A stretch of DNA of 64,000 nt, taken from Rubricoccus marinus. GTDB taxonomy: Bacteria > Bacteroidota > Rhodothermia > Rhodothermales > Rubricoccaceae. The notes under the pieces were generated by a model. It was not told where the DNA came from. It did not search any database and was given only the letters and a program-made list of their open reading frames with translations. A program made the position numbers and the translations under genes. Position 1 is the stretch's first letter, and each line of letters starts with the position of its first letter. Shown piece by piece: positions 1,633 through 57,494 of the stretch. The stretch is from NCBI RefSeq assembly GCF_002257665.1, contig NZ_MQWB01000001.1, positions 3,607,119 to 3,671,118 of the forward strand, given 5' to 3'.

Positions 1633-1662
1633 CGCGCCTCTGGCGCCAGAGGCGTCTGCGTT

Positions 1663-14795: not shown

Positions 14796-15958
14796 CGCCC
14801 GAGCAGCAGGCCCGACACATGGACCGCGCGCTCACGCTCGCCGCCAGAGGCGCAGGGGCGGTAAGCCCCAACCCGATGGTGGGCGCGGTGATCGTCGCTG
14901 CAGACGGCGAGACGGTTCTGGGCGAGGGCTGGCACCGCGCGTACGGTGGCCCCCACGCCGAGGTCTGGGCCGTGCGCGACGCCGACGAGCGGGCCTCTGT
15001 AAGCGGAAGCATGGCCTCTGGCGCGGACCTCACCGATGCCACCATCGTGGTCACGCTGGAGCCGTGCAGTCACTTCGGAAAAACGCCGCCGTGCGCGGAT
15101 TTGATTGTCGCCAGAGGCTTCCGGCGCGTGATCGTGGCGCACGAGGACCCGTTCCCCGAGGTCGCGGGCCGCGGCATCGCCCGCATCCGAGAAGCGGGCG
15201 CGGACGTGACGGTGGGCGTGCGCGAGACCGAGGCGCGGCGTCTCAACGAGGCGTTCCTCACGCACGTCCGAACCGGCCGCCCGCTCGTGACGCTGAAATG
15301 GGCCCTCACGCTGGACGGGCAGGTCGCGACGGCCTCTGGCGACTCTCGCTGGATCACCTCACCCCAGGCCCGCGCGCTCGTGCACCGCTGGCGCGCCGAG
15401 GCCGATGCTGTCCTCGTCGGCGCCGGGACGGCCCGCACGGACGACCCGAGCCTGACCGTCCGCGACTGGCCGCTGGCGGAGGGCCAGACGCAACCCCTCC
15501 GCATTGTGCTCGACCGCACGGGGTCCCTTGCCTCGGATCTAAAGCTGTTTACCGACGCCCACGCCTCTCGCACCGTCGCCGTCACGGCTCCTGCCGCCAC
15601 ACCAGCCTACGCCGACGCCCTCCGCGCCAGAGGCGGAACGGTTCTCACGGCGCCAGAGGCAGACGGGCACTTGGACCTCGGGGCGGTTCTGGACATGCTG
15701 GGCTCTGGCGAGGGCCTCGCGCGGCGGGTGCAGTCCGTCCTCGTTGAACCCGGTCCCGGCCTCGCAGCGGCCTTTCTCCGCCAGAGACTGACGGACCGCC
15801 TGTTCGCTTTTGTGGCGCCCAAACTGGCAGGTGTCGGCATCGGCATCGCGGGCGCGCTCGACGTGGAGCGCATGGCCGACGCGCTGACCTTTTTCGAGAG
15901 CGCATGGGAAACCGTCGGTCTGGACGTTCTGCTACGCGGCTACTTCCACGCTCCATGA
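14792..15958 (+). CDS. ribD: Bifunctional riboflavin biosynthesis deaminase/reductase RibD
   Basis: Catalyses deamination of the pyrimidine intermediate and then reduction of its ribosyl side chain, steps two and three of riboflavin synthesis. The N-terminal deaminase domain has SPNPMVGAVIV, the zinc ligands of GGPHAEVWAV and EPCSHFGKTPPC. The C-terminal reductase domain shows TLKWALTLDGQVA, DSRWITSP and DAVLVGAGTARTDDPSLTVR. The 388 residues match the usual fused enzyme. The start overlaps the preceding gene by 4 bases, and the stop overlaps the next gene's ATG, so three genes are coupled. Several motif-derived ARG and ASG peptides sit at domain surfaces. Confidence 0.95.
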   Translation: MTPEQQARHMDRALTLAARGAGAVSPNPMVGAVIVAADGETVLGEGWHRAYGGPHAEVWAVRDADERASVSGSMASGADLTDATIVVTLEPCSHFGKTPPCADLIVARGFRRVIVAHEDPFPEVAGRGIARIREAGADVTVGVRETEARRLNEAFLTHVRTGRPLVTLKWALTLDGQVATASGDSRWITSPQARALVHRWRAEADAVLVGAGTARTDDPSLTVRDWPLAEGQTQPLRIVLDRTGSLASDLKLFTDAHASRTVAVTAPAATPAYADALRARGGTVLTAPEADGHLDLGAVLDMLGSGEGLARRVQSVLVEPGPGLAAAFLRQRLTDRLFAFVAPKLAGVGIGIAGALDVERMADALTFFESAWETVGLDVLLRGYFHAP

Positions 15959-16524
15959 TGCGAACCGCCCTGCTGCTCTTTCTTCTCGCTGGCTGCGCGA
16001 CCGAGCCGGTCCCCTCCCCTCAGCCTCTGGCGCCAGAGGCCCCGCAACCGATCGCGGCGGACGTCCCGGACGATACAGAGTGGACATCAGAGCCAATCGT
16101 CTTGCCAGGCGAGGCCTCCGACGTGGTGGTCACCGAAATGAGGGTGGCGGCGCACCTGGACGCGGCGCCCGGCTATGACCGCGTCGTCTTTGAGTTCGAG
16201 GGCGGTCAGCCTGGGGTCGATGTGCGAACGGTCGACGCCGCTACCGCCTGCGGCTCGGGAGAGCCTCTGGCGGTTCCGGGCGCGTCCATCCTCTACGTGT
16301 CTCTGATCGGCGCCAGAGGCTTCACCGAAGACGGAACAGAAACCATCCGTCACTCGCCGGGCTCGCCACGCCTGCCCGCCCTCATAGGGACGGTCCCCGC
16401 CTGTGATTTTGAAGGGCGTCTTGAATGGGCGCTCGGCCTCGCATCGCCAGAGGCCTACCGCATCACGCGGCTCCACAACCCGGAGCGGCTGGCCGTGGAC
16501 ATCCGGCACCCGCTCCCCGACTGA
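15955..16524 (+). CDS. Lipoprotein with an AMIN-like domain
   Basis: The 189-residue product starts MMRTALLLFLLAGCATEP, a clear lipobox (LAGC). The rest, including YDRVVFEFEGGQPGVDVRTV and the ending YRITRLHNPERLAVDIRHP, resembles the AMIN-like beta domain found in periplasmic proteins. A proline-rich linker, PQPLAPEAPQP, is encoded exactly by an 18-bp palindrome at 16023. The ATG overlaps the ribD stop (ATGA), placing it inside the riboflavin cluster, although nothing in it suggests a riboflavin role. Confidence 0.8.
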   Translation: MMRTALLLFLLAGCATEPVPSPQPLAPEAPQPIAADVPDDTEWTSEPIVLPGEASDVVVTEMRVAAHLDAAPGYDRVVFEFEGGQPGVDVRTVDAATACGSGEPLAVPGASILYVSLIGARGFTEDGTETIRHSPGSPRLPALIGTVPACDFEGRLEWALGLASPEAYRITRLHNPERLAVDIRHPLPD

Positions 16525-21714: not shown

Positions 21715-21814
21715 AGGCGGGGGCGCGGTGGAGCCGCAAGCTATGAGAGAGCGAGGGAGAGACCAGGCCTCTGGCGCCAGAGGCTGCCCTTGGCTCTGCA
21801 CGCTCCCACATCCC

Positions 21815-24751: not shown

Positions 24752-24930
24752 GGAGAGCAAGGGCCGGCCTCTGGCGCCAGAGGCGAGCACGGCTGTGGAA
24801 GGCAGAACGTAGCCACCGCCCCGGCCGCAGCGCGCCAGAGGCCACGCGCGCGATCCCGGCGGCTCCCTATGCCGGGGGGCGCGGCGCGGCGGTTACCTTT
24901 CGCGACCCTCTCACTCCCCGCTCAACCACG

Positions 24931-26226: not shown

Positions 26227-26797
26227 CCCTCGGCGGGCCTCTGGCGGCGCGCGCCCCGCCCGGATTCCATCGCGCCGACGCCAGAGGCGGCCTCTGGCTC
26301 TCATGGCGTGGGGCGTTGCGGCGTGCACGCTCCTGGCGGGCTGCTACACGTTCTCGGGCGCGTCGCTCCCGGCGGATCTCCGGACGGTCGCTGTCCCTCC
26401 AGTCGAGAGCCGCGCCTCTGGCGGGCCGGCGGACCTGGACCAGCAGCTCACGACGGCCCTGATCGAGCGGTTCGCGGACCGGACGCGCCTCAATCTCGAA
26501 TCCGACGAGGCCGAGGCCGATCTCGTCGTCCGCGCGACCGTAGAGCGCTACACCATCGCGCCAGCGGCCATCACGGGCGGCGAGGGCGACGAGGTGGCCG
26601 CGCTCAACCGCGTCACGCTGGGCGTCCGCGTAGTCGCGACGAACCAGATGGACGGGACGGAGCTCATGGCGCGCTCCTTTACCGCCACCGCCGACTACAC
26701 GCCCGCCGAAGGCCTGGCGGGCGAGGCCGACGCGGCCAACCGCGCGTTGGAGCAGGTGGCGCAAGACGCCTTTACCGCCGCGACCTCGGACTGGTAA
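26219..26797 (+). CDS. lptE: LptE-like LPS-assembly lipoprotein
   Basis: Probably the outer-membrane lipoprotein partner of LptD in lipopolysaccharide insertion. After a basic N-region, the signal ends CTLLAGCYTFSGASLPADLR, and the body contains RTVAVPPVES, EADLVVRATVERYTI and a C-terminal amphipathic helix, as in the Bacteroidota LptE family, which often lies beside this type of sigma-54 activator. The ATG at 26219 overlaps the activator's stop. A second ATG at 26303 would begin immediately before the signal core. The disputed N-terminus is built largely from three motif copies. Confidence 0.8.
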   Translation: MSSPRRASGGARPARIPSRRRQRRPLALMAWGVAACTLLAGCYTFSGASLPADLRTVAVPPVESRASGGPADLDQQLTTALIERFADRTRLNLESDEAEADLVVRATVERYTIAPAAITGGEGDEVAALNRVTLGVRVVATNQMDGTELMARSFTATADYTPAEGLAGEADAANRALEQVAQDAFTAATSDW

Positions 26798-26801
26798 TGC
26801 C

Positions 26802-26840
26802 CGTTCGCCAGAGGCTCGGCTCTCGGCCTCTGGCGGAACG
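26802..26840. terminator. Hairpin from inverted motif copies after lptE
   Basis: Two facing motif copies form a 14-bp stem with one bulged C and a 10-base loop, five bases after the lptE stop. No T tract follows, so termination is uncertain. Confidence 0.45.
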
Positions 26841-26852
26841 CTGCCGCGGGCG

Positions 26853-28334
26853 GTGCCGTCGGTGGGGGCCGTTGCTCGTCTGTCTTGCGTGATCGTTCTC
26901 GCCGCCCTCTACGCCCTCGCCACCGCTGTCCTCGTCGCGCACGGTCTGCGCCTGCTCGGGCTCTCCTTCGCGCGGCTGACGACCTCGCCCGAGCCTCTGG
27001 CGCCAGAGGCCGGCATCGCGTGGCCACGTGTGTGCGTGCAGCTTCCGGTCTACAACGAGCCGGCCGTCGTGGAACGGGCCGTCGCCGCGCTGGGCGCGCT
27101 GGACTATCCCGACCTGGAGATCCAGGTGCTGGACGACTCCACCGACTCCACGCCGCAGCGCGCCGCCCGCGCCGTTCGAGATCTGAACGCCTCTGGCGTG
27201 CGCGCCACGCACATCCGGCGGGACAACCGGGAGGGGTTCAAGGCCGGCGCCCTCGCGAACGGCATGACGCACACGGACGCCGACCTCTTCGCCATCTTCG
27301 ACGCCGACTTCCTGCCCGAGCCCGGCACGCTCCGCCAACTCGTCTCGGCGCTGGTTGCGGCGCCAGAGGCGGCGTTTGCCCAAGCGCGCTGGGCGCACCT
27401 CAACCGCGACGCCTCGCCGCTGACGCGCGCGCAGGGCGCTCTCTTGGACCTCCACTTCGGCGTGGAACAGACCGGGCGCCAGAGGACCGGACGCTTCCTT
27501 CCCTTTAACGGGACGGCCGGCGTGTGGCGCCGCGAGGCCATCGAGGCCGCAGGCGGCTGGCGCGGCGACACGCTCGCAGAAGACCTCGACCTCTCGCTCC
27601 GTGCCTGGATGGGAGGCGCCAGAGGCGTATTCGTGGAGCCGCTTGCGGTCCCGGCCGAGCTCCCCGCCGACCTAGCCGCGTGGCGCACGCAGCAGGCGCG
27701 CTGGGCCGAGGGTATGGCCGCGGTCACGCTCCTCCACGCCAGAGGCGTGCTGCGCGCGCGCCAGCCTCTGGCGCTCCGGCTACGGGCGCTTCTCGCGATC
27801 TCGGCCTCGTTCTCGTTTCCGGCCCTGTTGGCGGTGATCGTGCTCCACCCGGTTCTGGCCGTTGCCCAGGCGCTCGGGACGGGGCCCGGCGAGACGTTCT
27901 TCACCGCGCTCGGCGCGGGGTGGTTGGGGTTGATCGGCGCCGTTGTGGCGCACGTTGTGGCGCAGCGGGCGATTGGTCCGGCGCCTCAAACGAGCAGCCT
28001 CTGGCGCCGGATCGGTGACCTGGGTCTCGGGCTCGCAGCCCCGGTCGCACTTGCGATGACGGGCACGCGGGCCGTCGGACGCGCGGTTCTGGGGAAGCAG
28101 ACGGCGTTTGTCCGTACGCCCAAAGGAGGGGCGCGCCGGGAAGCATCGGTCAGCCGCGCCGAGGTGGCGCTCGCGGCGTACGCCCTGGGCGCCGCCGCTG
28201 TCCTCGTCGCCGTCGGCGCGTGGGTGGCGCTCGCGTTCCAGATCGTCTTCGCGGCAACACTCGCCGTCTCGGCGTGGAGGGAGGGAAATGAGCGTGGAGA
28301 CCCGCTCCCGAGACCGATTCCGGCCTCACGTTGA
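26853..28334 (+). CDS. Membrane glycosyltransferase family 2
   Basis: Processive-type GT2 enzyme, likely making an envelope glycan or glycolipid. An N-terminal helix (VIVLAALYALATAVLVAHGL) precedes the GT-A domain with PVYNEPAVVERAV, VLDDSTD, FDADFLPEPG (DxD), TLAEDLDLSLRAW (acidic motif) and QQARWAEGM (QxxRW), the full set of the cellulose/mannan-synthase-like group. Three or four C-terminal membrane helices follow. The start is GTG; the first residues are weakly supported and a later GTG at 26889 is possible. It begins 12 bases after the motif hairpin and overlaps the next open frame by 4 bases. The sugar donor is unknown. Confidence 0.88.
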   Translation: MPSVGAVARLSCVIVLAALYALATAVLVAHGLRLLGLSFARLTTSPEPLAPEAGIAWPRVCVQLPVYNEPAVVERAVAALGALDYPDLEIQVLDDSTDSTPQRAARAVRDLNASGVRATHIRRDNREGFKAGALANGMTHTDADLFAIFDADFLPEPGTLRQLVSALVAAPEAAFAQARWAHLNRDASPLTRAQGALLDLHFGVEQTGRQRTGRFLPFNGTAGVWRREAIEAAGGWRGDTLAEDLDLSLRAWMGGARGVFVEPLAVPAELPADLAAWRTQQARWAEGMAAVTLLHARGVLRARQPLALRLRALLAISASFSFPALLAVIVLHPVLAVAQALGTGPGETFFTALGAGWLGLIGAVVAHVVAQRAIGPAPQTSSLWRRIGDLGLGLAAPVALAMTGTRAVGRAVLGKQTAFVRTPKGGARREASVSRAEVALAAYALGAAAVLVAVGAWVALAFQIVFAATLAVSAWREGNERGDPLPRPIPASR

Positions 28335-33735: not shown

Positions 33736-33829
33736 GCGGTCGCGTTGTGTCTGTATGCCCCTAGAACGCGCCGCGCGCCGGGGGGTTGCCTCTGGCGCCA
33801 GAGGCGGGGTGCGCCCTCTCCGTAGAACG

Positions 33830-36702: not shown

Positions 36703-39700
36703 CTAGCGGACGACCGTCATGCGACGGGTCGCCTGCTGGTCGCCGCTCTGAAGACGCACGATGTAGGTGCCGGGCGCGAGGCGCGAGGCGTCCACCGAGA
36801 TCGTCTGCTCAGAGCCCGCTTCGCCCATGCCGTCGTAGACGGTCTGGACAAGCTGGCCGAGCACGTTGTACATCTCCACGCGGACCGGAGCCGATTCGGC
36901 AACGGTGTACGCGATCGTCGCCTGTCCGCGCGCCGGGTTTGGGCGCGTAGGCAGAAGGGAGAAGTCCGTCGCAAGCGCGATCGGGCCTTCCTCGCCTGCG
37001 ACCGGCATCGAGCCGCGCTCGACAGAGCCGATATCGGTCTGGCCAACGCTGCGCATGAAGCCGCGCTGATCCACGTCGAATGAGCTGCTGCCCGCGTTCA
37101 CGGCTGGGCTGCCCTCCATCGGAAGGTGCGTCATCGTGAACCCGCCGTTGTCCGCGAGGTCACCGAGCATCGGGCTCATGCCCGTCACGTTGGTGTCCGT
37201 CTCGCCGTTGATGGTGCAGCCGGAGGTGTTCTGGATCAGGTTGTAGCCACCCGACTCGAACATGCCAAAGCAGTCCGCGCCAGAGGCCGCCGTGTTGGCG
37301 CCGATGATGCTGTTGGCGAACGTGTAGCTCGCGCCGTCGGTGCTCTCGGAGAGGAGCCCGCCGCCGTTACCACCGGCGGTGTTGAGCGCGACCGTGACGT
37401 CCTGAAGCATAATTTCCGCGCTGGAGTCGCCTCCGTTGTCGTAGAGACCACCTCCGTCCTCGGTCGCCGCGTTGCCGCTGACGGTCGAGAGCGCGATATC
37501 AAGCGCGCCTGCGCCTGCAACCCAGACGCCAGCGCCCTCGCGGGCCGTGTTGCCAGAGATCGTCGAGCTACGGATCGTCGCGACGCCGGAGCCTCCGATG
37601 TGGATGCCGCCGCCGTTGCCGGGGGCCGCCGTCGCAATGCTGTTGTCGCTCACGGTCACGTTGGTGAGCACGAGCGCCGTTTTAGCGGTCGAGTTGCCGT
37701 CATCGGCCACCTCGATCCCGGCACCGGCCCGGTTGGCGCGGTTGCCGCTGACGGTCCCGCGGTTCATGACCACGATGCTCTCGTCGGCGACGAAGATGCC
37801 GCCGCCGGAGCCGCTGGCGCCAGAGGCCACGTTATCCGTGATCATCGCGTCGTAGAGGCGGATGTCGCCGCCGGTCTCGGCGTAGACGCCACCGCCACCG
37901 TTCGTGGCGTCGTCGCCACGGCCGATGTTCTGCGTGATCATCGTCGTAGCGGCGTCGTCGTCCTCGTCACCGACGACGAGCGTGCCGTTGCTCCAGAGCC
38001 CACCCCCTTCGGTGGCCTCGTTGGCCGTGAAGTCACCGCCGCGGATCGTGATCATGCCACCACCACTGTGCAAGCCGCCGCCGTTGCCGGGGGCCGCCGT
38101 CGCAGCGGGAATGACGTTCTCGCGCACGCTGACGTTGACCATCTGCATGGTGCCGCCCGCGTTCTCGACGCCGGCGCCCGCACGGTTGGCCGTGTTCTGG
38201 CGGATGCTGCCGCCGGTCACGGTCGCCGAGGCGCCGCTGGCGACGAGGATGCCGCCGCCGGAGCCGCTGGCGCCAGAGGCCCGGTTCATCTCGATGACCG
38301 CGCTCGTGATGGAGGCCTCGCCTCCGCTCTCGACGTAGACACCGCCGCCGCCGTTGTCGGCTGCGGGGCCGCGCCCGATGTTGGACGCGATCACCGTCTG
38401 GTCCCCGGAGTCGCCGCCGGTGAGTTCGATGACGAGCGTGCCGTTGCTCCACAGGCCGCCGCCTTCGGTGGCCTCGTTGCTGCGGAACACGCCGCCTCGG
38501 ATGGTGACCGAGCCGCCACCCGCGTGGAGACCGCCACCGTTGCCGGGGGCCGCGCTCGCGGCGGGGATGATGTTGCTCAGAACCGTCACGCCGGTGATGA
38601 TCATGTCACCGCCTGCGTTCTCGATGCCAGCGCCAGCGCGGTTGGCCCGGTTGTCGGCGATGGTGCCTCCGTTGATGTCCATAGAGGCGCCGCTGGCGAC
38701 GAACACGCCGCCACCGGAGCCGCTGGCGCCAGAGGCCTGGTTGGCGGAGATCGTCGCGCCGTCGATCGTCGCGTCGGCGCCGGTCTCGGCGTACACGCCG
38801 CCGCCGCCGTTGGTCGCGTCGTCGCCGCGGCCGATGTTGCCTGAGATCGTCGTCGCCGTGCCGCCAGAGGAGCGGATGACGAGCCCGCCGCTGGCCCACA
38901 CGCCACCGCCTTCGGTGGCCTGGTTGCCGGAGAGCGTCGCGCCCTCAATCGTGAGCGTACCCCCGCCTGCGTGGATGCCGCCGCCGTTGCCGGGGGCTGC
39001 GCTCGCGGCGGGAATCACGTTGCCGTTGATCATGCCGCCGGTGACCGTGGTGGTCGCGCCTGCGCTTTCGATGCCGGCGCCTGCGCGGTTGGCCACGTTG
39101 CCGAGAAGGGTTGACGCGCGGACGTTCAGCGTGCCGCCGAGCGTCATCAGACCGCCACCGGAGCCGCTGGCGCCGTTGGCCACGTTGCCTTCGGCGGTGA
39201 TGCCCTCTACGTTCATCGTACCGCCGTTGTTGAACAGCGCGCCGCCGCCGTCGTCACCGGCTGCGCCAGAGGCCACATTGCCCACGAAGCGCGTGCCGGT
39301 GATGGTCATCGTGCCGGTGTTGTTCCAGAAGCCGCCGCCCTCGCGGGTGGCGACGTTGTTGTTCACCACGCCGCCGGTGATCGTTGCCGATCCGGTCGCG
39401 GAGATGTGGAAGGCGCCGCCGTTTCCGGGGTTGGAGCCCGCAGAGTTGCTGGCAAAGTTCGTATCGGTGATCGTTGTCCTGCTTGCACCTGCGGCCTCGA
39501 TAGCGCCACCAGCACGGCTGGCCGAGTTGTCTCTAAAAGCGCTTTCAGTGATGGTCAGCGTGCCTGCGTTGTTGAGTACAGCACCGCCTGAACCGCTCAT
39601 GCCAGAGGCAGCGTTGCCGGTGAGGGAGACGCCAACCAGCGTGACGTCTCCGCCATCGTTGTATACAGCTGCTCCTCCATCGGTTGCCTCAACACCCGTG

Positions 39701-40185
39701 GCGACATTGTCGCGGAATACGCAGTCGTCTGCGGAAAATTCGGCTCCAGAGGCGATGTAGATGCCTGCTCCGCGTTCGGCGCGAGCGTTTTGGATAACGG
39801 TGTTCTGGAGAACGAACCGCCCACCCGTTACAGCGAAGATCCGGTAGGTGTCCGCACCATCGATGACGACCGTGACCCCTCCGCCCAATCCAGAGTTGAT
39901 TGTTAGATCCTCCGTCACCTCCATCGCCTGCTGCGTCAGCATCAGAAGTGCAGGCGTGGGCGTGGACGTAATCGAGAACGAGATGTTGTCCCGGCCGCTG
40001 GCGCCAGAGGCGCAGGCGTCCACAGAGGCATTGGTGTTGGCAGAGACGATGGCCTCACGAAGGGAGCAATCACCGTCGTTGTTCAACTCATCGTTGAGCG
40101 TGTTGACGGTGATCGTGGCCGCGGTCGCCAGAGGCGCGGTAAGGAGAAACGCTAAGGCGCCGAAGAGTCTGTAGAATGGTCGCAT
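36703..40185 (-). CDS. Giant secreted beta-helix protein with T9SS sorting domain (paralogue 1)
   Basis: The 1160-residue exported protein has a signal peptide (MRPFYRLFGALAFLLTAPLA), then the CSLREA-type segment NDELNNDGDCSLREAIVSAN, then a long right-handed parallel beta-helix. The helix is built from repeated NGGGGVYAETG, SGASGSGGGVFVASGA, NRANRAGAGIENAGG and PGNGGGLHAGGG blocks, three larger modules of about 150 residues. The C-terminal 85 residues (LLPTRPNPARGQATIAYTVA through GTYIVRLQSG to RRMTVVR) form a type A sorting domain for type IX secretion. Likely displayed on or released from the surface, possibly for adhesion or polysaccharide binding. ATG at 40185 begins the signal. Closest relative: the gene at 40904-44383. 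Confidence 0.9.
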   Translation of the reverse strand: MRPFYRLFGALAFLLTAPLATAATITVNTLNDELNNDGDCSLREAIVSANTNASVDACASGASGRDNISFSITSTPTPALLMLTQQAMEVTEDLTINSGLGGGVTVVIDGADTYRIFAVTGGRFVLQNTVIQNARAERGAGIYIASGAEFSADDCVFRDNVATGVEATDGGAAVYNDGGDVTLVGVSLTGNAASGMSGSGGAVLNNAGTLTITESAFRDNSASRAGGAIEAAGASRTTITDTNFASNSAGSNPGNGGAFHISATGSATITGGVVNNNVATREGGGFWNNTGTMTITGTRFVGNVASGAAGDDGGGALFNNGGTMNVEGITAEGNVANGASGSGGGLMTLGGTLNVRASTLLGNVANRAGAGIESAGATTTVTGGMINGNVIPAASAAPGNGGGIHAGGGTLTIEGATLSGNQATEGGGVWASGGLVIRSSGGTATTISGNIGRGDDATNGGGGVYAETGADATIDGATISANQASGASGSGGGVFVASGASMDINGGTIADNRANRAGAGIENAGGDMIITGVTVLSNIIPAASAAPGNGGGLHAGGGSVTIRGGVFRSNEATEGGGLWSNGTLVIELTGGDSGDQTVIASNIGRGPAADNGGGGVYVESGGEASITSAVIEMNRASGASGSGGGILVASGASATVTGGSIRQNTANRAGAGVENAGGTMQMVNVSVRENVIPAATAAPGNGGGLHSGGGMITIRGGDFTANEATEGGGLWSNGTLVVGDEDDDAATTMITQNIGRGDDATNGGGGVYAETGGDIRLYDAMITDNVASGASGSGGGIFVADESIVVMNRGTVSGNRANRAGAGIEVADDGNSTAKTALVLTNVTVSDNSIATAAPGNGGGIHIGGSGVATIRSSTISGNTAREGAGVWVAGAGALDIALSTVSGNAATEDGGGLYDNGGDSSAEIMLQDVTVALNTAGGNGGGLLSESTDGASYTFANSIIGANTAASGADCFGMFESGGYNLIQNTSGCTINGETDTNVTGMSPMLGDLADNGGFTMTHLPMEGSPAVNAGSSSFDVDQRGFMRSVGQTDIGSVERGSMPVAGEEGPIALATDFSLLPTRPNPARGQATIAYTVAESAPVRVEMYNVLGQLVQTVYDGMGEAGSEQTISVDASRLAPGTYIVRLQSGDQQATRRMTVVR

Positions 40186-40370
40186 GAGAGCGGGAAGAGA
40201 GAGAGGGGAGTTGGCAAGATGAAGGGCGAGGCCTTCTATCTGGAAGACCATCATATGCTCATTACGTGCCCGAACGTGTCCGAGTCCGTCTGATAGCACC
40301 GTCAGGAAGAGCGAGGTCTAGATATATCCGGCATTCCCCTATGCGAGTCCTCAACAGGCTCGCACGCTCC

Positions 40371-40730
40371 CTACGCGCCAGCGGCCTCTGACGAGAGAGA
40401 CGGCTCCAAGTGAGACGGAAAGGTATCTACGTCAACGCGCGTACGCGGAAGTGCCCCGGGGTGAGCCTCACATAGCCAAGTGAGAAGGGCCTCTCGCACC
40501 TCGCACCGCAGATCCCATAGGTTGCCCGCGTTGGCGGCGGACATCATGGCCCGCATCTCGACGGTGCTCTCCGTTAGTTCGGTGACCTGCAAGGCCCACG
40601 AGCCGCCGTGCTAGTGAGGCGACGCTTCGACGATACGCCCTAGCTCAGTGCAGACCTCATCTACAGGTATCGTGTAGTCCATCCGATCAGTAATCTGGAT
40701 CAAGATCACTTCCGGCCATCGTGCTTTCAC
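40371..40730 (-). pseudogene. Remnant of a mechanosensitive (MscS-type) channel gene
   Basis: Only the C-terminal cytoplasmic part survives. Reading on the minus strand gives DYTIPVDEVCTELGRIVEASPH, an in-frame TAG at 40611-40613, then WALQVTELTESTVEMRAMMSA and LRCEVREALLTWL ending LPRTRVDV. In intact relatives the stop falls where a Leu-Trp-Asp-Gly stretch is expected, so the codons have decayed by point changes. The membrane domain is absent. Sequence from 40731 to 40903 and 40186 to 40370 shows no gene. The fragment sits between two paralogous beta-helix genes, suggesting insertion or duplication of those genes disrupted the channel locus. Confidence 0.75.
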
Positions 40731-40903
40731 GCATGATCAGGACCTACAGCGCCCCGTCACTTTCCACGGCACCCTCGGCGCTCTCACCCCCTTGCTGAAG
40801 CCCATGTCTTCAACGAAACACGACCCATCGAACAAATCCGACCAAGCGCTTTTCAGGGAAGAGTAAAGGTTCCTGGCGCAGCCGGCCGCTAGAGGCCGAT
40901 CCC

Positions 40904-43900
40904 TTAGCGGATGATCGTGATCCGCTGCGTCGCCTGCTGATCCTGGCTCTGCAGACGGATCACATACACGCCAGGAGCGAGGCGCGACGTGTTGAGCGGA
41001 ACGGTCTGCTCCGTGCCAGCCTCACCTATTCCGTCGTAGACGGTCTGGACGAGTTGGCCGAGCACGTTGTAGAGCTCCACACGGACCGACGCCGCCGTGG
41101 CAACGGTGTACGCGATGGTCGCTTGGCTGCGCACCGGGTTCGGGCGCGTCGGCAGTAGCGCGAAGTCCGTCTCAATGAAAGCAGGGACTTCCTCGTTAGG
41201 AACGGCCTGCGCGCCGCGCTCGACTGAGCCGATATCGGCCTGGCCGACGTTTCGGAGGAAGCCACGCTGGTCCAGACTGAACACACTCCGTCCTGAGTCA
41301 ATGGCCGGGCTGCCGTCCATTGGAAGATGCGTACGCGTTGGCCCGCCATTGTCCGCGAGGTTCTCGAGCATCGGGTCGAGATCCGTCACGTCGGTGCTTA
41401 TCGCGCCTACAATGCTGCACTCACCCCTCGCCCCGATAAGGTTGAACCCGCCAGAGGCGAACGTACCGAAGCAATCTCCGCCTGAAACGGCTCCGTTGCT
41501 TGCGATGATGCTGTTCGCGAACGTGAAGCTGGCCCCGTCATCGCTCTGCGAGTACAGGCCGCCGCCGTTGCCGCCCGATGTGTTCGTTACGACCGTCACG
41601 CTTTGCAACGAGATGTCGGCACTGGATGCGCCCCCGTTGTCATAGATGCCGCCACCATTCTCGGTCGCGTCGTTGCCACTGACGGTCGCTAGCGCGATAT
41701 CGAGTGCGCCGGTGCCCGCAACCCACACACCCGCACCCTCGCGGGCGGTGTTGCCAGAGATCGTTGAGGTGCGGATCGTCGCCACACCGGAGCCGCCGAC
41801 GTGGATCCCTCCGCCGTTTCCAGGGGCTGCATCATCGATAAGGTTGTCGCTTACTGTCACGTCCGTGAGCACGAGGGCCGTTTTACCTGCGAGCGCGCCG
41901 TCGTCGGCGACCTCAATGCCACCACCGGCGCGGTTGGCACGATTGTCCGAGACGGTGACGCGTTGTAGTTGGACCACGCTCTCATCGGCTACGAAGATGC
42001 CGCCGCCGGAGCCGCCGGCGCCAGAGGCCCGGTTGTTCGTGATCAGCGCATTCCTGATGAGCACATCGGCGCCCGTCTCGGCGTAGATGCCGCCACCGCC
42101 GTTTGTGGCGTCGTCGCCCCGGCCGTAGTTCGTGTTGATGACCGTTGGGAACGGCTCATCATCTGGGTTGAGGATGCGAAGCACGCCGCTGGTCCACAGG
42201 CCGCCGCCTTCGGTGGCGTGGTTGTTGGCGAAGAACCCGGCACGGACGGTGACCGTGCCGCCTCCGCTGTGCAGCCCTCCTCCGTTGCCGGGTGCCGCGC
42301 TCTCCTCAGGAATCACGTTCGAGACCACGCTCGTGTTGATGAGATGGACCGTCCCGCCTGCGTTCTCGATGCCTGCACCCGCGCGGTTGGCCTGGTTTTC
42401 TCGGAGTTCGGTGTCGGTCACCGTGAGCGTCGCGCCCTTGGCGACGAAGAGGGCGCCGCCAGAGCCGCTGGCGCCCAAAGCGCGGTTGGTGAGAAGGACT
42501 GCGCCTGTGATGAAGCCCTCGCCGCCGCTCTCCATGTACACACCGCCACCTCCGTTGTCCGCCGCAGCACCCCGAGCGTCGTTCGCGGAAATATCCGGCT
42601 GCGTGATGGAGGGACCACTACCGCTCAGTTCGACCACGAGCACGCCACTGCTCCACAGGCCACCGCCTTCTGTCGCCTGGTTAGCAACAATCTCACCTCC
42701 GCGGATCGTCACCGTCCCACCGCCGCTGTGAAGCCCTCCACCATTGCCGGGGTTGGCCGTCGCAGCAGGAATGGCGTTCGAGGTGAGCATCGTTTGAATG
42801 AGGAGCACCTCGCCCCCCGCATTCTCGATGCCCGCGCCCGCGCGATTAGCCGCGTTGTTGTCAACAAAAACGTTGTCGAGGGTGGCCACGGCGCCTCTGG
42901 CGACAAAGAGGCCGCCGCCCGAGCCGCTAGCGCCAGAGGCCGCGTTGCTGAAAATCTCCGAGCGGGCGATTAGCGCGTCGCCGCCCGTCTCGACGTAGAC
43001 ACCCCCGCCGCCATTCGTAGCCTCGTCGCCGCGTCCCACGTTTCCGGAGATGATGGAGCTGGTGCCACCAGACGCGCGGATAATGAGGTCACCATTAGAC
43101 CACACGCCGCCCCCTTCAGTGGCCTGATTATCTGCGATGGTAGTGCCTTCGATTGTGAGCGTGCCTCCGCCCGCGTGGATGCCACCGCCGTTGCCAGGCG
43201 ACGCCGTCTCAGCAGGGATCACGTTCTCAGAGATCGTGCCGCGCACGATTGTGATCATTCCGCCCGCACTTTCAATGCCAGCTCCGGCGCGGTTGGCACG
43301 GTTGCCCGTGATCGTCGGCGAGAAGACGGTCATGGTCCCACCGACCGACATCAAAGCGCCGCCGGAGCCGCTAGCGCCAGAGGCGGTGTTGCCTGTGGCA
43401 GTGACGCCTGAGATCGACAGCGTACCGCCGTTGTTGAAAATGGCACCGCCGCCGTCATCCGCTTCATCTCCCCGAGCCTCGTTGTTCTCGAACCGGGTGT
43501 CGTCGATCTCCATCGTGCCGGTGCCGTTCCAGAAGCCGCCTCCCTCCCGTGAGGCGATGTTTCCCGAAACAACGCCCTCGCGGATGGTAGCCGACCCATT
43601 CGACGAGATGTGAAACGCCCCACCATTGCCGGGATTCGATTGCGCCTCGTTCCGGACGAAATCCGCGAACCTCATCGTCGTCGTGCTCGCGCCTGCGGAC
43701 TCGATCGCGCCTCCCGCGCGCATCGCGGTGTTGCGGATGAAGTCAGACGACTCCACGGTCAACGTTCCACCGTTGTTGAATACAGCGCCGCCAGAACCGC
43801 TCTCGCCAGAGGCCGCGTTCTGCTCCAGCGTCGAATTGGCGACGATGACGTCACCGCCGTCGTTGTAAATGGCACCGCCACCGTCCGTGGACGATGTGCC

Positions 43901-44383
43901 TGTGGCCTCGTTGTTGCGAACAATGGACCTGTTACAAACGAAGCGAGCACCCGGTGAGACATACACCGCTGCGCCGCGTACTGCTCGACCGTCGCGAAGG
44001 GTGAGATCCGAGATCGCCAGACGACCTGATGTGATGTAAAAGATGCGTCGGGTGCCGTCGGAACGAAGGGTGACGGTCGAGTCATCCTGCTGCCCCCCAT
44101 GGATGACAACGTCCGTCGTTATTTCTAGCGGTCCCAAAGTGAGGGCGATGGTGAGAGGGGCCGGTTGATCGAACCGGATGGCGTCGAAGTTGCCACTTCC
44201 CGCCGTGCAGTCATCAACAAGGGCATCGGTATTGGCTGCCGCGATCGCCTCGCGCAGAGAGCAGTCCCCGTCGCTATTGAGTTCGTCATCTAGCGTGGTG
44301 ACGATGATCGTCGCGGCAGACGCTAGAGGCGTGATGACGAGTAGAAGGACGAGGACGCCCAGGAAAGAGTAGAGAGGCCTCAT
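40904..44383 (-). CDS. Giant secreted beta-helix protein with T9SS sorting domain (paralogue 2)
   Basis: The 1159-residue paralogue of the gene at 36703-40185. Its signal is MRPLYSFLGVLVLLLVITPL, then LDDELNSDGDCSLREAIAAA, the same beta-helix module order (for example ATNGGGGVYVETGGDALIAR and NRANRAGAGIENAGGEVLLI) and a type A sorting domain ending QQATQRITIIR. The two products keep nearly the same length but differ across most surface positions, indicating an old duplication under divergence. In this copy, fewer of the ASGASG turns are encoded by perfect copies of the iterated 10-mer. Probably exported through the type IX system. Confidence 0.9.
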   Translation of the reverse strand: MRPLYSFLGVLVLLLVITPLASAATIIVTTLDDELNSDGDCSLREAIAAANTDALVDDCTAGSGNFDAIRFDQPAPLTIALTLGPLEITTDVVIHGGQQDDSTVTLRSDGTRRIFYITSGRLAISDLTLRDGRAVRGAAVYVSPGARFVCNRSIVRNNEATGTSSTDGGGAIYNDGGDVIVANSTLEQNAASGESGSGGAVFNNGGTLTVESSDFIRNTAMRAGGAIESAGASTTTMRFADFVRNEAQSNPGNGGAFHISSNGSATIREGVVSGNIASREGGGFWNGTGTMEIDDTRFENNEARGDEADDGGGAIFNNGGTLSISGVTATGNTASGASGSGGALMSVGGTMTVFSPTITGNRANRAGAGIESAGGMITIVRGTISENVIPAETASPGNGGGIHAGGGTLTIEGTTIADNQATEGGGVWSNGDLIIRASGGTSSIISGNVGRGDEATNGGGGVYVETGGDALIARSEIFSNAASGASGSGGGLFVARGAVATLDNVFVDNNAANRAGAGIENAGGEVLLIQTMLTSNAIPAATANPGNGGGLHSGGGTVTIRGGEIVANQATEGGGLWSSGVLVVELSGSGPSITQPDISANDARGAAADNGGGGVYMESGGEGFITGAVLLTNRALGASGSGGALFVAKGATLTVTDTELRENQANRAGAGIENAGGTVHLINTSVVSNVIPEESAAPGNGGGLHSGGGTVTVRAGFFANNHATEGGGLWTSGVLRILNPDDEPFPTVINTNYGRGDDATNGGGGIYAETGADVLIRNALITNNRASGAGGSGGGIFVADESVVQLQRVTVSDNRANRAGGGIEVADDGALAGKTALVLTDVTVSDNLIDDAAPGNGGGIHVGGSGVATIRTSTISGNTAREGAGVWVAGTGALDIALATVSGNDATENGGGIYDNGGASSADISLQSVTVVTNTSGGNGGGLYSQSDDGASFTFANSIIASNGAVSGGDCFGTFASGGFNLIGARGECSIVGAISTDVTDLDPMLENLADNGGPTRTHLPMDGSPAIDSGRSVFSLDQRGFLRNVGQADIGSVERGAQAVPNEEVPAFIETDFALLPTRPNPVRSQATIAYTVATAASVRVELYNVLGQLVQTVYDGIGEAGTEQTVPLNTSRLAPGVYVIRLQSQDQQATQRITIIR

Positions 44384-51654: not shown

Positions 51655-51840
51655 GGGCGGTGATGGCGTAACGGGGAAAGCATCGGCGTAGTGGAACCGT
51701 TTGTTAAACGAGCCCATGGGATGTGCACTTCGGCATCTCCATCGGTCTTCTGCACGCTCCCGCGCGGTCACCCCGCAGCCTCTGGCGCCAGAGGCGAGCC
51801 GTGCGTGGTACGTTTCGGGCCAGCCCCCCTCCCCTCTCCC

Positions 51841-53106: not shown

Positions 53107-54285
53107 ATGACCGTCTGCGACCTCACGCACGCCTACCACGAGACCAGCGGGGGCATCCGCACCTACATCGACGCGAAGCGGCGCTACATCCTGGAGGAAA
53201 CGGAGCACTCGCACGCGCTCGTCATTCCGGGAGAAACGGACCGCGTGACGCGCGACGGGCGGGCAGTCACCGTAGAAGTGGCGGCGCCGTTTATCGCGGG
53301 CGCCGAACCGTACCGGTGGTTCCGCAACCCCCGCAGCGCGCGTAGAGCGCTGGAATACGTCGCGCCAGAGGTGATCGAGCTGGGCACCTACTTCATGCCG
53401 ACTGAGTGGCAGCCCGCGTTCGCGGTCCGCAACGCGAGGCGCCGCGCAGGGAAAGCGGGCATCGTCTCCATCTTTACCCACACCGACTTTGCGGACTCCT
53501 ACGCCGAGGGCTACGTCTCGCAGGTGCTCGGCGACCGGGTGGGAAAGCTGACCGGCAAAGCGGCGCACGTCTACGTCAAGCAGCTCATCAACCGCGCCGA
53601 TTGCGCGGCGGCGCCCTCCCCTGCTCAGGCCCAGGACTTCCACAAGCGCGGCCTAGATGTGCTCCTGGCCAGCTACGGCGTGGATGTCAAGACGTTCACG
53701 CCCCAGGCCGCCTCTGGCGCCGAGGTCCGCGCCGAACTCGGCATCCCGCCAGAGGCCCTCTTCCTCGTCTACGCCGGCCGGCTGGACTCGGAAAAGCGTA
53801 CGGACACGATGGTGAGCGCGGTTCGGCGCGTCAATGAGACGCGCCCGGCCGTTCTGGTGATGGTGGGCGAAGGCCCGCACCGCGATGGCCTCAAAGAGGA
53901 ACAGGAAGCGGGCGCGCCTATCCGTGTCCTCCCCTATCTCACGAGCAAAGAAGCGCTGGCTCGCCTGTTCGCCTCGGCCGACCTCTATCTCACCGCCGGG
54001 CCGTACGAGACGTTCGGCCTCTCGGTCGCCGAGGCGCAGGCCTGTGGCCTCCCGGTCGTCGGCGTCGCCGGCGGCGCGCTGATCGAGCGCGTGCCCGACG
54101 GCCTCGGCCTCCTCGGCCCCGTTGACGACGACGAGGCGATGGCCACCAACATCCTCCAGGTCGCCGAGTGCCGCGACGAGATGGGCCGCGCCGGACGCGA
54201 GGAGGTCGTCGCGCGTTTCGCGTGGGAGATCACCTTCCGCAAGATGTTCGGCCTCTACGACGCCGCGCTCGCCCGCACGGCGTAG
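53107..54285 (+). CDS. Glycosyltransferase family 4 (second copy)
   Basis: The 392-residue GT-B enzyme starts MTVCDLTHAYHETSGGIRTY, an acceptor-domain opening like those of phosphatidylinositol or diacylglycerol glycosyltransferases. Later it has LVYAGRLDSEKRTDTMVSAV and LYLTAGPYETFGLSVAEAQA, then CGLPVVGVAGGALIERVPDG, the nucleotide-sugar site with the EX7E-type acidic pair. Its sequence differs strongly from the preceding glycosyltransferase, so the two likely add different sugars in one pathway. An 18-bp motif palindrome starts right at the stop codon (54286). Confidence 0.88.
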   Translation: MTVCDLTHAYHETSGGIRTYIDAKRRYILEETEHSHALVIPGETDRVTRDGRAVTVEVAAPFIAGAEPYRWFRNPRSARRALEYVAPEVIELGTYFMPTEWQPAFAVRNARRRAGKAGIVSIFTHTDFADSYAEGYVSQVLGDRVGKLTGKAAHVYVKQLINRADCAAAPSPAQAQDFHKRGLDVLLASYGVDVKTFTPQAASGAEVRAELGIPPEALFLVYAGRLDSEKRTDTMVSAVRRVNETRPAVLVMVGEGPHRDGLKEEQEAGAPIRVLPYLTSKEALARLFASADLYLTAGPYETFGLSVAEAQACGLPVVGVAGGALIERVPDGLGLLGPVDDDEAMATNILQVAECRDEMGRAGREEVVARFAWEITFRKMFGLYDAALARTA

Positions 54286-54399
54286 GCCTCTGGCGCCAGA
54301 GGCTGGCCTCGCGTCCCTCGCCAAACCACAAGCGCGGGTGGAATCAAGCGCGTGGTCTCGTCGTCTACCTCCTGTCTTCCTCCCCTACCCCGACTCACG

Positions 54400-55011
54400 A
54401 TGACCAAACTGACACTCCTCTTCGCGCTCCTCTTCGCGGCTTCGGCCGTCCAGGCTCAGGACCATGACATGGCCGGAGGCCACGATGGCGCCGAGCACGC
54501 GATGCACCAGAACATGCCGCCCATGCGCGCCAACGATTCGGCGCGCCCGAGCCCCAACGCTGGCGTCATGCAGACCATCGGCACCACGACCGTGATGGTG
54601 CATTACAGCCGCCCATCCGCCAAGGGCCGCACCATCTTCGCGAGCAGCGACGACGCGCTCGTCCCGCTTGGCAAGGTCTGGCGGACCGGAGCCAACGAGG
54701 CGACGGCGGTTTCCTTCTCTGGTGACGTGATGATCGGCGGCGAAACGCTCCCAGCCGGCACCTACGGCCTGTTCACCATCCCCGGCGAAAGCGAGTGGAC
54801 CATCATCTTCAACAACGTCGCCGAGCAGTGGGGCTCGATGGGCTACGATGAGGCTGAGGACGCGCTCCGCGTGATGGCAGCGCCCATCTCCGGCGGACCG
54901 GCGCAGGAGCAGTTCGAGATCTCCTTCGAGAACGTCACCGCAGAAGGCGGCGTGATGGTCCTCGCATGGGACGATGTCCGCGTGCCCGTTTCCATCTCCG
55001 TCGCAGGCTAG
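54400..55011 (+). CDS. Secreted DUF2911 protein
   Basis: The 203-residue product has a signal peptide (MTKLTLLFALLFAASAVQA), a His/Met-rich stretch (DHDMAGGHDGAEHAMHQNMP), and then the DUF2911 domain: VMVHYSRPSAKGRTIFA, LVPLGKVWRTGANEATAVSF, LPAGTYGLFTIPGESEW. The family is common in Bacteroidota and its function is unknown; the Met/His segment could bind copper. ATG at 54400 begins the signal. A motif-based terminator follows 20 bases after the stop. Confidence 0.9.
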   Translation: MTKLTLLFALLFAASAVQAQDHDMAGGHDGAEHAMHQNMPPMRANDSARPSPNAGVMQTIGTTTVMVHYSRPSAKGRTIFASSDDALVPLGKVWRTGANEATAVSFSGDVMIGGETLPAGTYGLFTIPGESEWTIIFNNVAEQWGSMGYDEAEDALRVMAAPISGGPAQEQFEISFENVTAEGGVMVLAWDDVRVPVSISVAG

Positions 55012-55031: not shown

Positions 55032-55080
55032 CCGAGCCTCTGGCGCAGACGTGGTCTCGCCAGAGGCTCGGTTCGTTTGG
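55032..55080 (+). terminator. Terminator built from two facing motif copies
   Basis: A 14-bp perfect stem (arms 55032-55045 and 55058-55071) with a 12-base loop, each arm holding one 10-mer copy, is followed by TTCGTTTGG. It ends the DUF2911 gene. Confidence 0.78.
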
Positions 55081-55120
55081 GGCCACCGGCGAGGCGCCGC
55101 GCGGCCCGCTAGTTAAGCGT

Positions 55121-55942
55121 TCAGGCGTCCCAGTCTGGCGCGAACCCGGGCTGCACGAGCCGCTGCGAACGAGCGAGCGCATCGATCTGCGCGACTTCGT
55201 CGGCCGAGAGCGTGAGGTCCAACGCGGCGAAGTTGGCCTCGATGTGCGCGCGAGAGGTGGCCTTGGGCACCGCCGCCACGCGGTCCTGCTGGATCAGCCA
55301 CGCGAGCGTGACCTGCACCGGCGTCGCGCCGTGCGCGTCCCCGATGGCCTGGAGCGTCGCGTCTTCCACGACGGCTCCCTGCGCGATGGGGCTGTACGCC
55401 GTCAGGAACAGGCCTCTGGCGCGGACGGCCTCTAAAAGCGTGTCCTGGGACAGGAAGGGGTGATACTCCACTTGGTCACACGCCAGCGTCGGCTCGATCT
55501 CCAGCGCGCGTTCCAGCATCTCGCTGGGTGTGTTGCTCACACCGATCAGCCGTGCTTTCCCCGCGTCGCGCACGTCGGCAAGCGCGCGGATCGTTTCCTC
55601 CAGTGGGATGTCGGCGTTCGGCCAGTGCATAAGGAGCAGGTCCACGTAGTCCGTGTCCAGCTTGCGGAGGCTTTCGTCCGCCACGCGGTGCACGCCGGCC
55701 GCATCTAGGTCGTCGCGCCACACCTTCGTCGTGACGAACACGTCATCGCGCGCGACGCCAGAGGCCTTCAGCCCGCGCCCGACCTCTTCCTCGTTGCCGT
55801 ACATCTGCGCGGTATCGATGTGACGGTAGCCGATATCGAGGGCATTGCGGACGGCGGTTTCGGCATCGCTGCCGCGGAGCTTGTACGTGCCGAGTCCGAG
55901 CGTGGGGACGACGACGCCGTGGATGGAAAGGTGGCGAGGCAT
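55121..55942 (-). CDS. Aldo/keto reductase
   Basis: NADPH-dependent reductase of 273 residues with the AKR barrel signatures GLGTYKLRGSDAETAVRNAL, DIGYRHIDTAQMYGNEEEVG (catalytic Asp and Tyr), VFVTTKVWRDDL (Lys), DYVDLLLMHWPN (His) and RLIGVSNTPSEM. This matches the small-molecule AKR group that reduces methylglyoxal or other aldehydes. ATG at 55942 fits the family start; the upstream frame to 56122 is not protein-like. It is divergent from pgi, with which it might share a regulatory region. Confidence 0.93.
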   Translation of the reverse strand: MPRHLSIHGVVVPTLGLGTYKLRGSDAETAVRNALDIGYRHIDTAQMYGNEEEVGRGLKASGVARDDVFVTTKVWRDDLDAAGVHRVADESLRKLDTDYVDLLLMHWPNADIPLEETIRALADVRDAGKARLIGVSNTPSEMLERALEIEPTLACDQVEYHPFLSQDTLLEAVRARGLFLTAYSPIAQGAVVEDATLQAIGDAHGATPVQVTLAWLIQQDRVAAVPKATSRAHIEANFAALDLTLSADEVAQIDALARSQRLVQPGFAPDWDA

Positions 55943-56171
55943 ACGGGTAGGGGCTATTTCCGCATGCACGCCCCCGCGCCCACGCCGGTTCGCCACAGGC
56001 CTCTGGCGCGGCGGCTGTTCGCGGAAACCGCGAGACGGCTGTTCGCTATCTGAGTGGTGCCGAAAGCGCCCCGTTACGCACGGCGCCGATCTGCCTCTCT
56101 CCACAGTCATCGCCAGAGGCACCGCACGCCTCTGGCGGCGTACAGCCCGCGTCCTCCTCTTTCCCTACGCC

Positions 56172-57440
56172 ATGCGCCTTTCCCTCGACCGCTCCCGCGC
56201 CCTCCCCTTTCTCACCGACCGCGACGCGCTCGACGGCGCCGTGCTGGACGCCCACGGCAAGGTGCTCACCGGCGGCACGCGCAGCCCCGAGATGCTCGGC
56301 TGGCGCCAGATGCTCCTTGAGCCCGACGACGCGCTGATCGAATCCGTGCAGAACGTCGCGAGCGAGATCCGCGAGCGCGCGGACGTGCTCGTGTGCGTCG
56401 GCATCGGCGGCTCGTACCTCGGCGCCGAGGCCGTGAACCAGGCCCTCGCGCCGTACTTCGGAGCAGATAGTCCCGAGGTCATCTTCGCCGGCCACCACCT
56501 CTCGCCCGCCTACCACGAGCAGCTTCTGGCGTACTTGGAGGGCAAGAGCGTGTACGTCAACGTGATCTCGAAGTCCGGGACCACGCTGGAGCCCGCGATG
56601 GCTTTCCGCTTCCTCCGCCGCTTTCTCGAAGAGCGCTTCGACGACGCCGACCGCCGCGTGATCGCGACGACCGACAAGTCCTCTGGCGTCCTCCGTGGGC
56701 TCGCCGACGAGAAAGGCTACCGGACTTACGTCGTGCCGGATGACGTCGGCGGCCGGTTCTCGGTCCTCACGCCCGTCGGCTTGCTCCCCATCGCCGCGGC
56801 CGGTCACGACATCCGCTCGCTGTTTTACGGCGCCGTCGGTGCCGCCAGAGGCCTGACGGATGCGGGCGCGGACCACCCGGCGCTGGCGTACGCGGGCGAC
56901 CGGTTCGCTTTCCACGAGGCCGGCTACAGCGTCGAGCTCATGTCCGTCATGGAAGCCAAGTTGCGCGGGCTGGGCTACTGGTGGCAGCAGCTCTACGGCG
57001 AGAGCGAGGGCAAGGAAGGCAAAGGCCTCTTCCCCGTTACGCTCCAGTACACGACCGACCTCCACTCAGTCGGCCAGTACGTGCAAGAAGGCAAGCGCCT
57101 GTTCGTGGAAAGCTTCTTGCGCCTGGACGACGAGAAGGCAGGCCTGACGCTGGACGAGGAGCCCGATAACCCAGACCAACTCAACGACCTCGCCGGCACG
57201 CCTTACGGCGCTGCGAACAAAGCCGCCTGGGAAGGCACCGCCGAAGCCCACCGCGAGGGCGACGTGCCCAGCTGGACGTGGACACTCCCCCGCATCGACG
57301 CCGACGCTCTCGGCGAAGCGATCTACACCTTCGAGCACGCCGTCGCCGTCAGCGGCACGATGCTGGGCGTCGATCCCTTCAACCAGCCGGGCGTAGAGGC
57401 GTACAAGAAGAAGATGTTTCGCTTGCTCGGGCGCGATTAG
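56172..57440 (+). CDS. pgi: Glucose-6-phosphate isomerase
   Basis: Interconverts glucose-6-phosphate and fructose-6-phosphate in glycolysis. VLVCVGIGGSYLGAEAVNQA and VYVNVISKSGTTLEPAMAFR are the substrate phosphate-binding signatures, GLGYWWQQLYGESEGKEGKG holds the catalytic Glu region, and GVDPFNQPGVEAYKKKMF ends the protein. The 422 residues fit the short (Bacillus/Bacteroidota) class. ATG at 56172. Followed by a motif-based hairpin and the oriC-like region. Confidence 0.95.
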   Translation: MRLSLDRSRALPFLTDRDALDGAVLDAHGKVLTGGTRSPEMLGWRQMLLEPDDALIESVQNVASEIRERADVLVCVGIGGSYLGAEAVNQALAPYFGADSPEVIFAGHHLSPAYHEQLLAYLEGKSVYVNVISKSGTTLEPAMAFRFLRRFLEERFDDADRRVIATTDKSSGVLRGLADEKGYRTYVVPDDVGGRFSVLTPVGLLPIAAAGHDIRSLFYGAVGAARGLTDAGADHPALAYAGDRFAFHEAGYSVELMSVMEAKLRGLGYWWQQLYGESEGKEGKGLFPVTLQYTTDLHSVGQYVQEGKRLFVESFLRLDDEKAGLTLDEEPDNPDQLNDLAGTPYGAANKAAWEGTAEAHREGDVPSWTWTLPRIDADALGEAIYTFEHAVAVSGTMLGVDPFNQPGVEAYKKKMFRLLGRD

Positions 57441-57460
57441 GACCCATCACCCCCTTCTCT

Positions 57461-57494
57461 GCGGCCTCTGGCGTTCGATTTCGCCAGAGGCCGC
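57461..57494 (+). terminator. Hairpin terminator after pgi made from inverted motif copies
   Basis: Arms 57461-57473 and 57482-57494 pair over 13 bp around a TTCGATTT loop, 20 bases past the pgi stop. The sequence after it (GTTGCGTTC) is only weakly T-rich. Confidence 0.65.

What the first reader, a model, noticed from the sequence alone, without database searches (positions are those of the whole stretch)
55032..57494. Facing motif copies double as transcription terminators
After the DUF2911 gene (55032-55071), after pgi (57461-57494) and after lptE (26802-26840), two inverted copies of the 10-mer form 13- or 14-bp stems. A perfect 18-bp palindrome lies at or within a few bases of the stops at 1632 and 54285. 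In Neisseria and Haemophilus, inverted uptake sequences are also used as terminators, so the arrangement supports an uptake-sequence interpretation.
Basis: partly seen in the sequence, partly recalled or inferred. Interest (0 to 1): 0.7.

Follow-up and report, generated by a model that had tools for sequence, protein, structure and literature searches.

The report
Paired repeat words as gene-end hairpins
A marine bacterium (probably Rubricoccus marinus) carries one 10-letter DNA word about 14,000 times; two copies facing opposite ways often sit just behind a gene and fold into a hairpin that could mark the end of the RNA, but only a minority look like classical stop signals, and the word behaves like the uptake words known from Neisseria and Haemophilus.

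Summary
GCCTCTGGCG occurs 14,176 times in the 4.43-Mb genome (reversed-word control 61). In 1.26 Mb that I gene-called, inverted pairs pile up behind stop codons: 54% of the 18-bp facing palindromes lie 0-60 nt past a stop, against 9% of single copies and 5% of random positions. They are densest between convergent genes. The terminator reading holds only in part. The lptE pair is tail-to-tail with no U-tract, and many pairs lie inside genes. Inverted orientation is favoured everywhere, including inside genes, so termination cannot be its only cause. Hairpins recur at the same orthologous gene ends in relatives that use different words (13 seen, 6.6 expected), which suggests an RNA 3'-end role; Rho is present. 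Relatives carry their own words (CCGCTGGCGG; CCGAGGCGG), chromosomal competence and pilus genes exist, and plasmid-like contigs nearly lack the word. This favours an uptake-word system with dialects, co-opted at gene ends. Uptake itself is untested.

The parts
55032..55071 (.). Facing pair, 14-bp stem, loop 12, then TTCGTTTGGG; best intrinsic-terminator candidate, reads for DUF2911 (54400-55011 +); lies in a convergent gap
   Evidence: (predicted -34.6 kcal/mol)
57461..57494 (+). Facing pair, 13-bp stem, loop 8, then GTTGCGTTCA; second terminator candidate, 20 nt after the pgi stop (56172-57440 +)
   Evidence: (-29.7 kcal/mol)
26802..26840 (+). Tail-to-tail inverted pair 8 nt after the lptE stop (26303-26797 +); strong hairpin, no T-tract (next CTGCCGCGGG)
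   Evidence: (-26.3 kcal/mol)
1635..1654 (.). Facing palindrome CGCCTCTGGCGCCAGAGGCG 2 nt after the stop at 1632; no T-tract
54286..54303 (.). Facing palindrome directly abutting the stop at 54285 (glycosyltransferase gene 53107-54285 +); no T-tract
21767..21784 (.).
33788..33805 (.).
16023..16040 (.). Facing palindrome inside a coding sequence (15958-16524 +): counter-example to a terminator role
24767..24784 (.). Facing palindrome inside the GH92 coding sequence: counter-example
26993..27010 (.). Facing palindrome inside a coding sequence (26889-28334 +): counter-example
51778..51795 (.). Facing palindrome between divergent genes (starts at 51717 - and 51841 +): counter-example
56111..56137 (.).

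Best explanation
The word GCCTCTGGCG is the species' dialect of a family-wide DNA uptake-type word, spread through the chromosome by substitution and recombination of taken-up kin DNA (inferred). Because so many copies exist in both orientations, close inverted pairs arise often. At gene 3' ends such pairs are kept because the transcript folds into a stable GC-rich hairpin (placement shown; function inferred). A minority, mainly spaced facing pairs with a T-rich tail such as those after DUF2911 and pgi, are ordinary intrinsic terminators. The majority lack a U-tract and more likely act as RNA 3'-end barriers, stopping 3'-5' exonucleases after Rho-dependent termination downstream (inferred; Rho is encoded). 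So the words double as gene-end hairpins, and only some double as terminators.
For: Copy number 14,176 vs 61 for the reversed control, both strands equal (7,049/7,127). Sharp 10-bp core: commonest one-mismatch word 143 against 1,343. Density 2.7/kb in CDS, 10.0/kb between genes. Pairs concentrate 0-60 nt past stops, and the share of copies in pairs is highest between convergent genes. T-rich tails in 16 of 85 stop-side spaced facing pairs, baseline 3%; 21 of 57 canonical terminators contain the word. Paired hairpins recur at orthologous 3' ends built from a different word: 13 vs 6.6 expected, z 3.3; gaps >=50 only, 7 vs 3.1, z 2.9; mere presence of the word shows no such link, 17 vs 16.7. Dialects in relatives: CCGCTGGCGG 1,680 and 1,990 copies in G046 and G050; CCGAGGCGGG 1,778, 1,369 and 1,030 in G047-49; none in G043-45. 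In relatives, homologous positions usually lack the word and differ mostly at its two T positions. ComEC, DprA, ComEA, PilB-, PilT- and secretin-type genes on the main chromosome. Plasmid-like contigs: 4 copies where about 55 are expected in 17.3 kb (my sum). Rho present.
Against: No transformation or 3'-end mapping data exist here. No DNA-binding minor pilin (ComP-type) was identified. Palindromes and tail-to-tail pairs show no T enrichment. Inverted preference holds inside genes as well, so part of the 3'-end signal may be general pairing plus relaxed constraint. Orthologue counts are small, G050 alone is not significant, and conserved gap length could contribute. I found no report of natural transformation in this clade in the papers searched.
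Confidence: 0.6

Rival explanations
1. Neutral by-product: the word accumulates wherever constraint is weak; pairs accumulate in short 3' gaps simply because promoters and starts exclude hairpins, with no RNA function.
For: Intergenic density is 3.7x that of genes. All close-pair classes, direct ones included, are enriched past stops. Most pairs lack U-tracts. Stems are not extended beyond the word on average.
Against: Within co-directional gaps facing palindromes lie nearer the stop than single copies (p = 0.0007). Pairing, not presence of the word, is shared at orthologous 3' ends. A subset has real T-tails.
Confidence: 0.25
2. HIP1-like highly iterated word kept by a DNA-modification or repair bias rather than by uptake; hairpins at gene ends are secondary.
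For: Density of about 1 per 312 bp is of the order I recall for HIP1 in cyanobacteria (memory). HIP words also differ between genomes and have been tied to methyltransferases (PMC4390886).
Against: The word is not palindromic, unlike HIP1. Plasmid-like contigs nearly lack it. Competence genes are present.
Confidence: 0.2
3. All stop-side pairs are true intrinsic terminators, U-tract or not.
For: Placement behind stops and between convergent genes; very stable predicted stems for the spaced pairs.
Against: Palindromes behind stops have the same T content as the baseline (1.30 vs 1.30 in 8), and their stems fold to only about -11 kcal/mol. Rho is encoded. 133 palindromes sit inside genes in 1.13 Mb of CDS.
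Confidence: 0.12

Closest known systems
Neisseriaceae DNA uptake sequence (DUS) and its dialects (PMC3630211, PMC2397512)
   Same: 10-12 bp word in thousands of copies on both strands, related words in related species, intergenic excess, inverted pairs behind genes.
   Different: Different phylum (Bacteroidota/Rhodothermota). About 1 per 312 bp, denser than the densest dialect in that paper (kingDUS, 5,918 in 2.4 Mb). Pairs overlap by 2 bp, whereas that paper says DUS pairs do not overlap. Many pairs inside genes. No demonstrated uptake, no ComP found.
Haemophilus/Pasteurellaceae uptake signal sequence (USS) terminators (PMC1852404)
   Same: Both pair orders occur; a minority of words form terminators; 17-29% of predicted terminators contain the word there, 37% (21 of 57) of my canonical set here.
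   Different: Extended USS motifs are AT-rich and supply A/T tails; here the flanks are GC-rich and most pairs have no T-tail. The method and threshold for terminators differ.
HIP1 of cyanobacteria (PMC4390886)
   Same: Extreme chromosomal iteration, lineage variants.
   Different: HIP1 is an 8-bp palindrome tied to methyltransferases; this word is a non-palindromic 10-mer that nearly spares plasmid-like contigs.
Rho-independent (intrinsic) terminators
   Same: GC-rich stem-loop shortly after a stop codon.
   Different: T-tract lacking in about 92% of stop-side pairs.

Membership tests
DNA uptake sequence (DUS/USS) | Short word enormously over-represented on both strands of the chromosome | tested here: met
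   14,176 vs 61 control; 7,049/7,127 by strand
DNA uptake sequence (DUS/USS) | Related words (dialects) in related species | tested here: met
   CCGCTGGCGG in G046/G050, CCGAGGCGG(G) in G047-49
DNA uptake sequence (DUS/USS) | Natural-transformation machinery (T4P, ComEA, ComEC, DprA) | tested here: met
   presence of genes only, and such genes also occur in bacteria without uptake words
DNA uptake sequence (DUS/USS) | Word raises uptake or transformation of DNA | not testable with these tools
   needs a transformation assay
DNA uptake sequence (DUS/USS) | Dedicated receptor pilin (ComP-type) | tested here: inconclusive
   PF07963 hits only on accessory contig C11
Intrinsic terminator | GC-rich stem-loop close behind a stop codon | tested here: met
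Intrinsic terminator | U-tract directly after the stem | tested here: not met
   Not met for the class: 30 of 400 stop-side pairs, baseline 3%. Met for 16 of 85 spaced facing pairs by the fixed threshold; 55032-55071 and 57461-57494 are T-rich
Intrinsic terminator | RNA 3' end at the site | not testable with these tools
   needs Term-seq
HIP1 | Palindromic word | tested here: not met
   GCCTCTGGCG is not its own reverse complement
HIP1 | Cognate DNA methyltransferases | not tested
   no methyltransferase search or methylome was used
Chi / KOPS-type polar words | Strand skew along the replichores | tested here: not met
   strands nearly balanced in all 20 sampled stretches
REP/REPIN elements | Conserved sequence beyond the word; mostly intergenic | tested here: not met
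   flanks carry almost no information; about two thirds of copies are in CDS

The most novel reading that the evidence does not exclude
The word spreads by a process that itself favours inverted neighbours: opposite orientation makes up 97% of same-gene pairs under 20 bp apart, 66% at 100-150 bp and 50% beyond about 400 bp. The same trend is seen with the different words of relatives inside genes. That would mean a pairing- or direction-dependent uptake or copying mechanism, with gene-end hairpins as one outcome.
Probability: 0.25. Interest if true: 0.85.

Novelty: new variant of a known kind. Interest (0 to 1): 0.68.

Why it matters
Uptake words with dialects are firmly described in Neisseriaceae and Pasteurellaceae. 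A third, independent system in the Rubricoccaceae, denser than the densest DUS dialect in the paper consulted and with at least three dialects in one family, would allow separate tests of how such words spread, change and get reused. The gene-end hairpins give a natural experiment: the same gene end, the same hairpin role, a different word. The orientation coupling inside genes is not explained by termination and puts a constraint on any model of how uptake works.

Tried and rejected
Stem extension by template switching: flanks of inverted pairs are no more alike than those of distant pairs. Helical phasing of pair spacing: no 10.5-bp signal in inverted pairs, at most the codon period. Strand polarity: none. 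Viral contigs bearing the palindrome: none found. Literature on uptake words in this clade: none found in the library searched. First pgi reference was out of frame, repeated correctly.

Full report
WHAT WAS CHECKED. The window is G000:C1:3607119-3671118 of a 4,430,441-base genome. Best-named relatives are Rubrivirga and other Rubricoccaceae. The size equals the 4.43 Mbp published for Rubricoccus marinus SG-29 (PMC5877348), so I infer that species; G047 and G048 likewise match the published sizes of Rubrivirga marina and R. profundi.

OBSERVATION. Two corrections apply: the lptE pair is tail-to-tail, not facing, and the palindrome near 1632 is 20 bp. Gene identities hold: DUF2911, PGI, LptE. 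The window has 31 inverted pairs with starts <=40 bp apart, many in genes or upstream of starts. Only the DUF2911 and pgi pairs have stems extended by 3 or more bases beyond the word without interruption, and these two also have T-rich tails (TTCGTTTGGG, GTTGCGTTCA).

SCALE. I gene-called 1.264 Mb of the genome with a dicodon model (1,039 genes). It places pgi at 56172-57440. The sample holds 4,384 copies: 2.7 per kb in CDS, 10.0 per kb between genes. Pairs at start distance 8 are overlapping palindromes: 244 facing (GCCTCTGGCGCCAGAGGC) and 167 tail-to-tail (CGCCAGAGGCCTCTGGCG), against about 4 per other distance. Whole genome: 873 facing palindromes, none in 242 of 243 other genomes of the class; the exception, G048, has four.

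RELATION TO STOP CODONS. Shares lying 0-60 nt past a stop: facing palindromes 53.7%, tail palindromes 34.7%, spaced facing 34.3%, spaced tail 28.1%, single copies 9.0%, random positions 4.7%. Facing palindromes per kb: convergent gaps 2.58, co-directional 1.42, divergent 0.64, CDS 0.055. Of intergenic copies, 70%, 62% and 50% are in inverted pairs in convergent, co-directional and divergent gaps (convergent vs divergent p = 1.5e-5). Within co-directional gaps, facing palindromes lie nearer the stop than single copies (p = 0.0007).

ARE THEY TERMINATORS? After extending each stem outward, stop-side pairs with >=4 T in the next 8 bases are 9/174 (facing palindromes), 2/79 (tail palindromes), 3/62 (spaced tail) and 16/85 (spaced facing), against 3.0% at +25 to +33 after stops. 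So a T-tract is enriched only in spaced facing pairs. A separate scan for hairpin plus >=5 T finds 57 of 1,024 stops (antisense control 18); 21 of the 57 contain the word. By my fixed threshold this is a small set. Rho is encoded, so most ends may be Rho-made. The predicted palindrome stem is modest, about -11 kcal/mol; the DUF2911 and pgi stems are -34.6 and -29.7.

CONSERVATION OF THE ROLE. Among reciprocal-best orthologues with G046, G050 and G047, a word-built pair behind the stop occurs in both species 13 times where 6.6 are expected (z 3.3); with gaps >=50 nt in both, 7 vs 3.1 (z 2.9); presence of any copy of the word shows no association, 17 vs 16.7. Because the words differ between species, the hairpin and not the letters is what is shared. 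Strong hairpins of any sequence give 10 vs 5.4 (z 2.4). Counts are small, G050 alone is not significant, and conserved operon layout is not fully excluded.

THE INVERTED PREFERENCE IS WIDER THAN GENE ENDS. Within the same gene, opposite orientation is 96.5% of pairs under 20 bp apart, 81% at 20-40, 66% at 100-150, 56% at 200-300 and 50% beyond about 400 bp. The other words show the same inside genes (101-200 bp, pooled 148 inverted vs 81 direct, my sum over G046, G050 and G047). Termination cannot explain this. In N. meningitidis only 3 such hairpins were intragenic among 635 intragenic copies (PMC1852404), so this is a difference from the model system.

WHAT THE WORD IS. The core is sharp. 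It is found at this level in no other genome of the order, not even in the same genus. Relatives have their own words: CCGCTGGCGG in G046 and G050, CCGAGGCGG in G047, G048, G049. By eye the first differs from GCCTCTGGCG by one internal base and the frame of the ends. At the positions of the word, relatives mostly have unrelated GC-rich letters, with the two T positions the least matched; homologous positions carry the relative's own word 3-9 times more often than my chance estimate. About a third of these positions are gapped in the alignment, so small insertions are not excluded for those. ComEC, DprA, ComEA and PilB-, PilT- and secretin-type genes are on the main chromosome. Contigs C11, C14 and C15, two of which carry conjugation ATPases, have 4 copies in 17.3 kb (about 55 expected). 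These features match DUS/USS systems; uptake itself was not tested.

VERDICT. Observation confirmed; terminator reading partly supported; uptake reading plausible and best supported by evidence other than the pairs.

Noticed in passing
G048:C3:1090500-1093889 and G048:C7:37303-37320: Four exact copies of the G000 palindrome in G048, three within 3.4 kb: looks like imported Rubricoccus-type DNA.
   Followed up: no
G000 contigs C11, C14, C15 (loci L238, L240, L241, L243, L244): Plasmid-like contigs with TrbB-type ATPases (C14, C15) or a secretin, pilins and a secretion-type ATPase (C11) nearly lack the word.
   Followed up: partly
G050 versus G046: G050 shares the CCGCTGGCGG word with G046 although it is grouped with G047-49, which use CCGAGGCGG.
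   Followed up: no
L023 (G000:C1:2520001-2540000): Word density falls to 25 per 20 kb with lower GC (0.613): probably a recently acquired region.
   Followed up: no
window 36703-44383: Two large minus-strand genes repeat GCCTCTGGCGCCAGCGGCTCCG-like contexts, so some word copies there are part of protein repeats.
   Followed up: no
L043, L044 (Longimonas and a Rhodothermaceae MAG): TATCCACA / GTGGATAA is over-represented in these 21-kb loci; resembles DnaA-box-like words.
   Followed up: no
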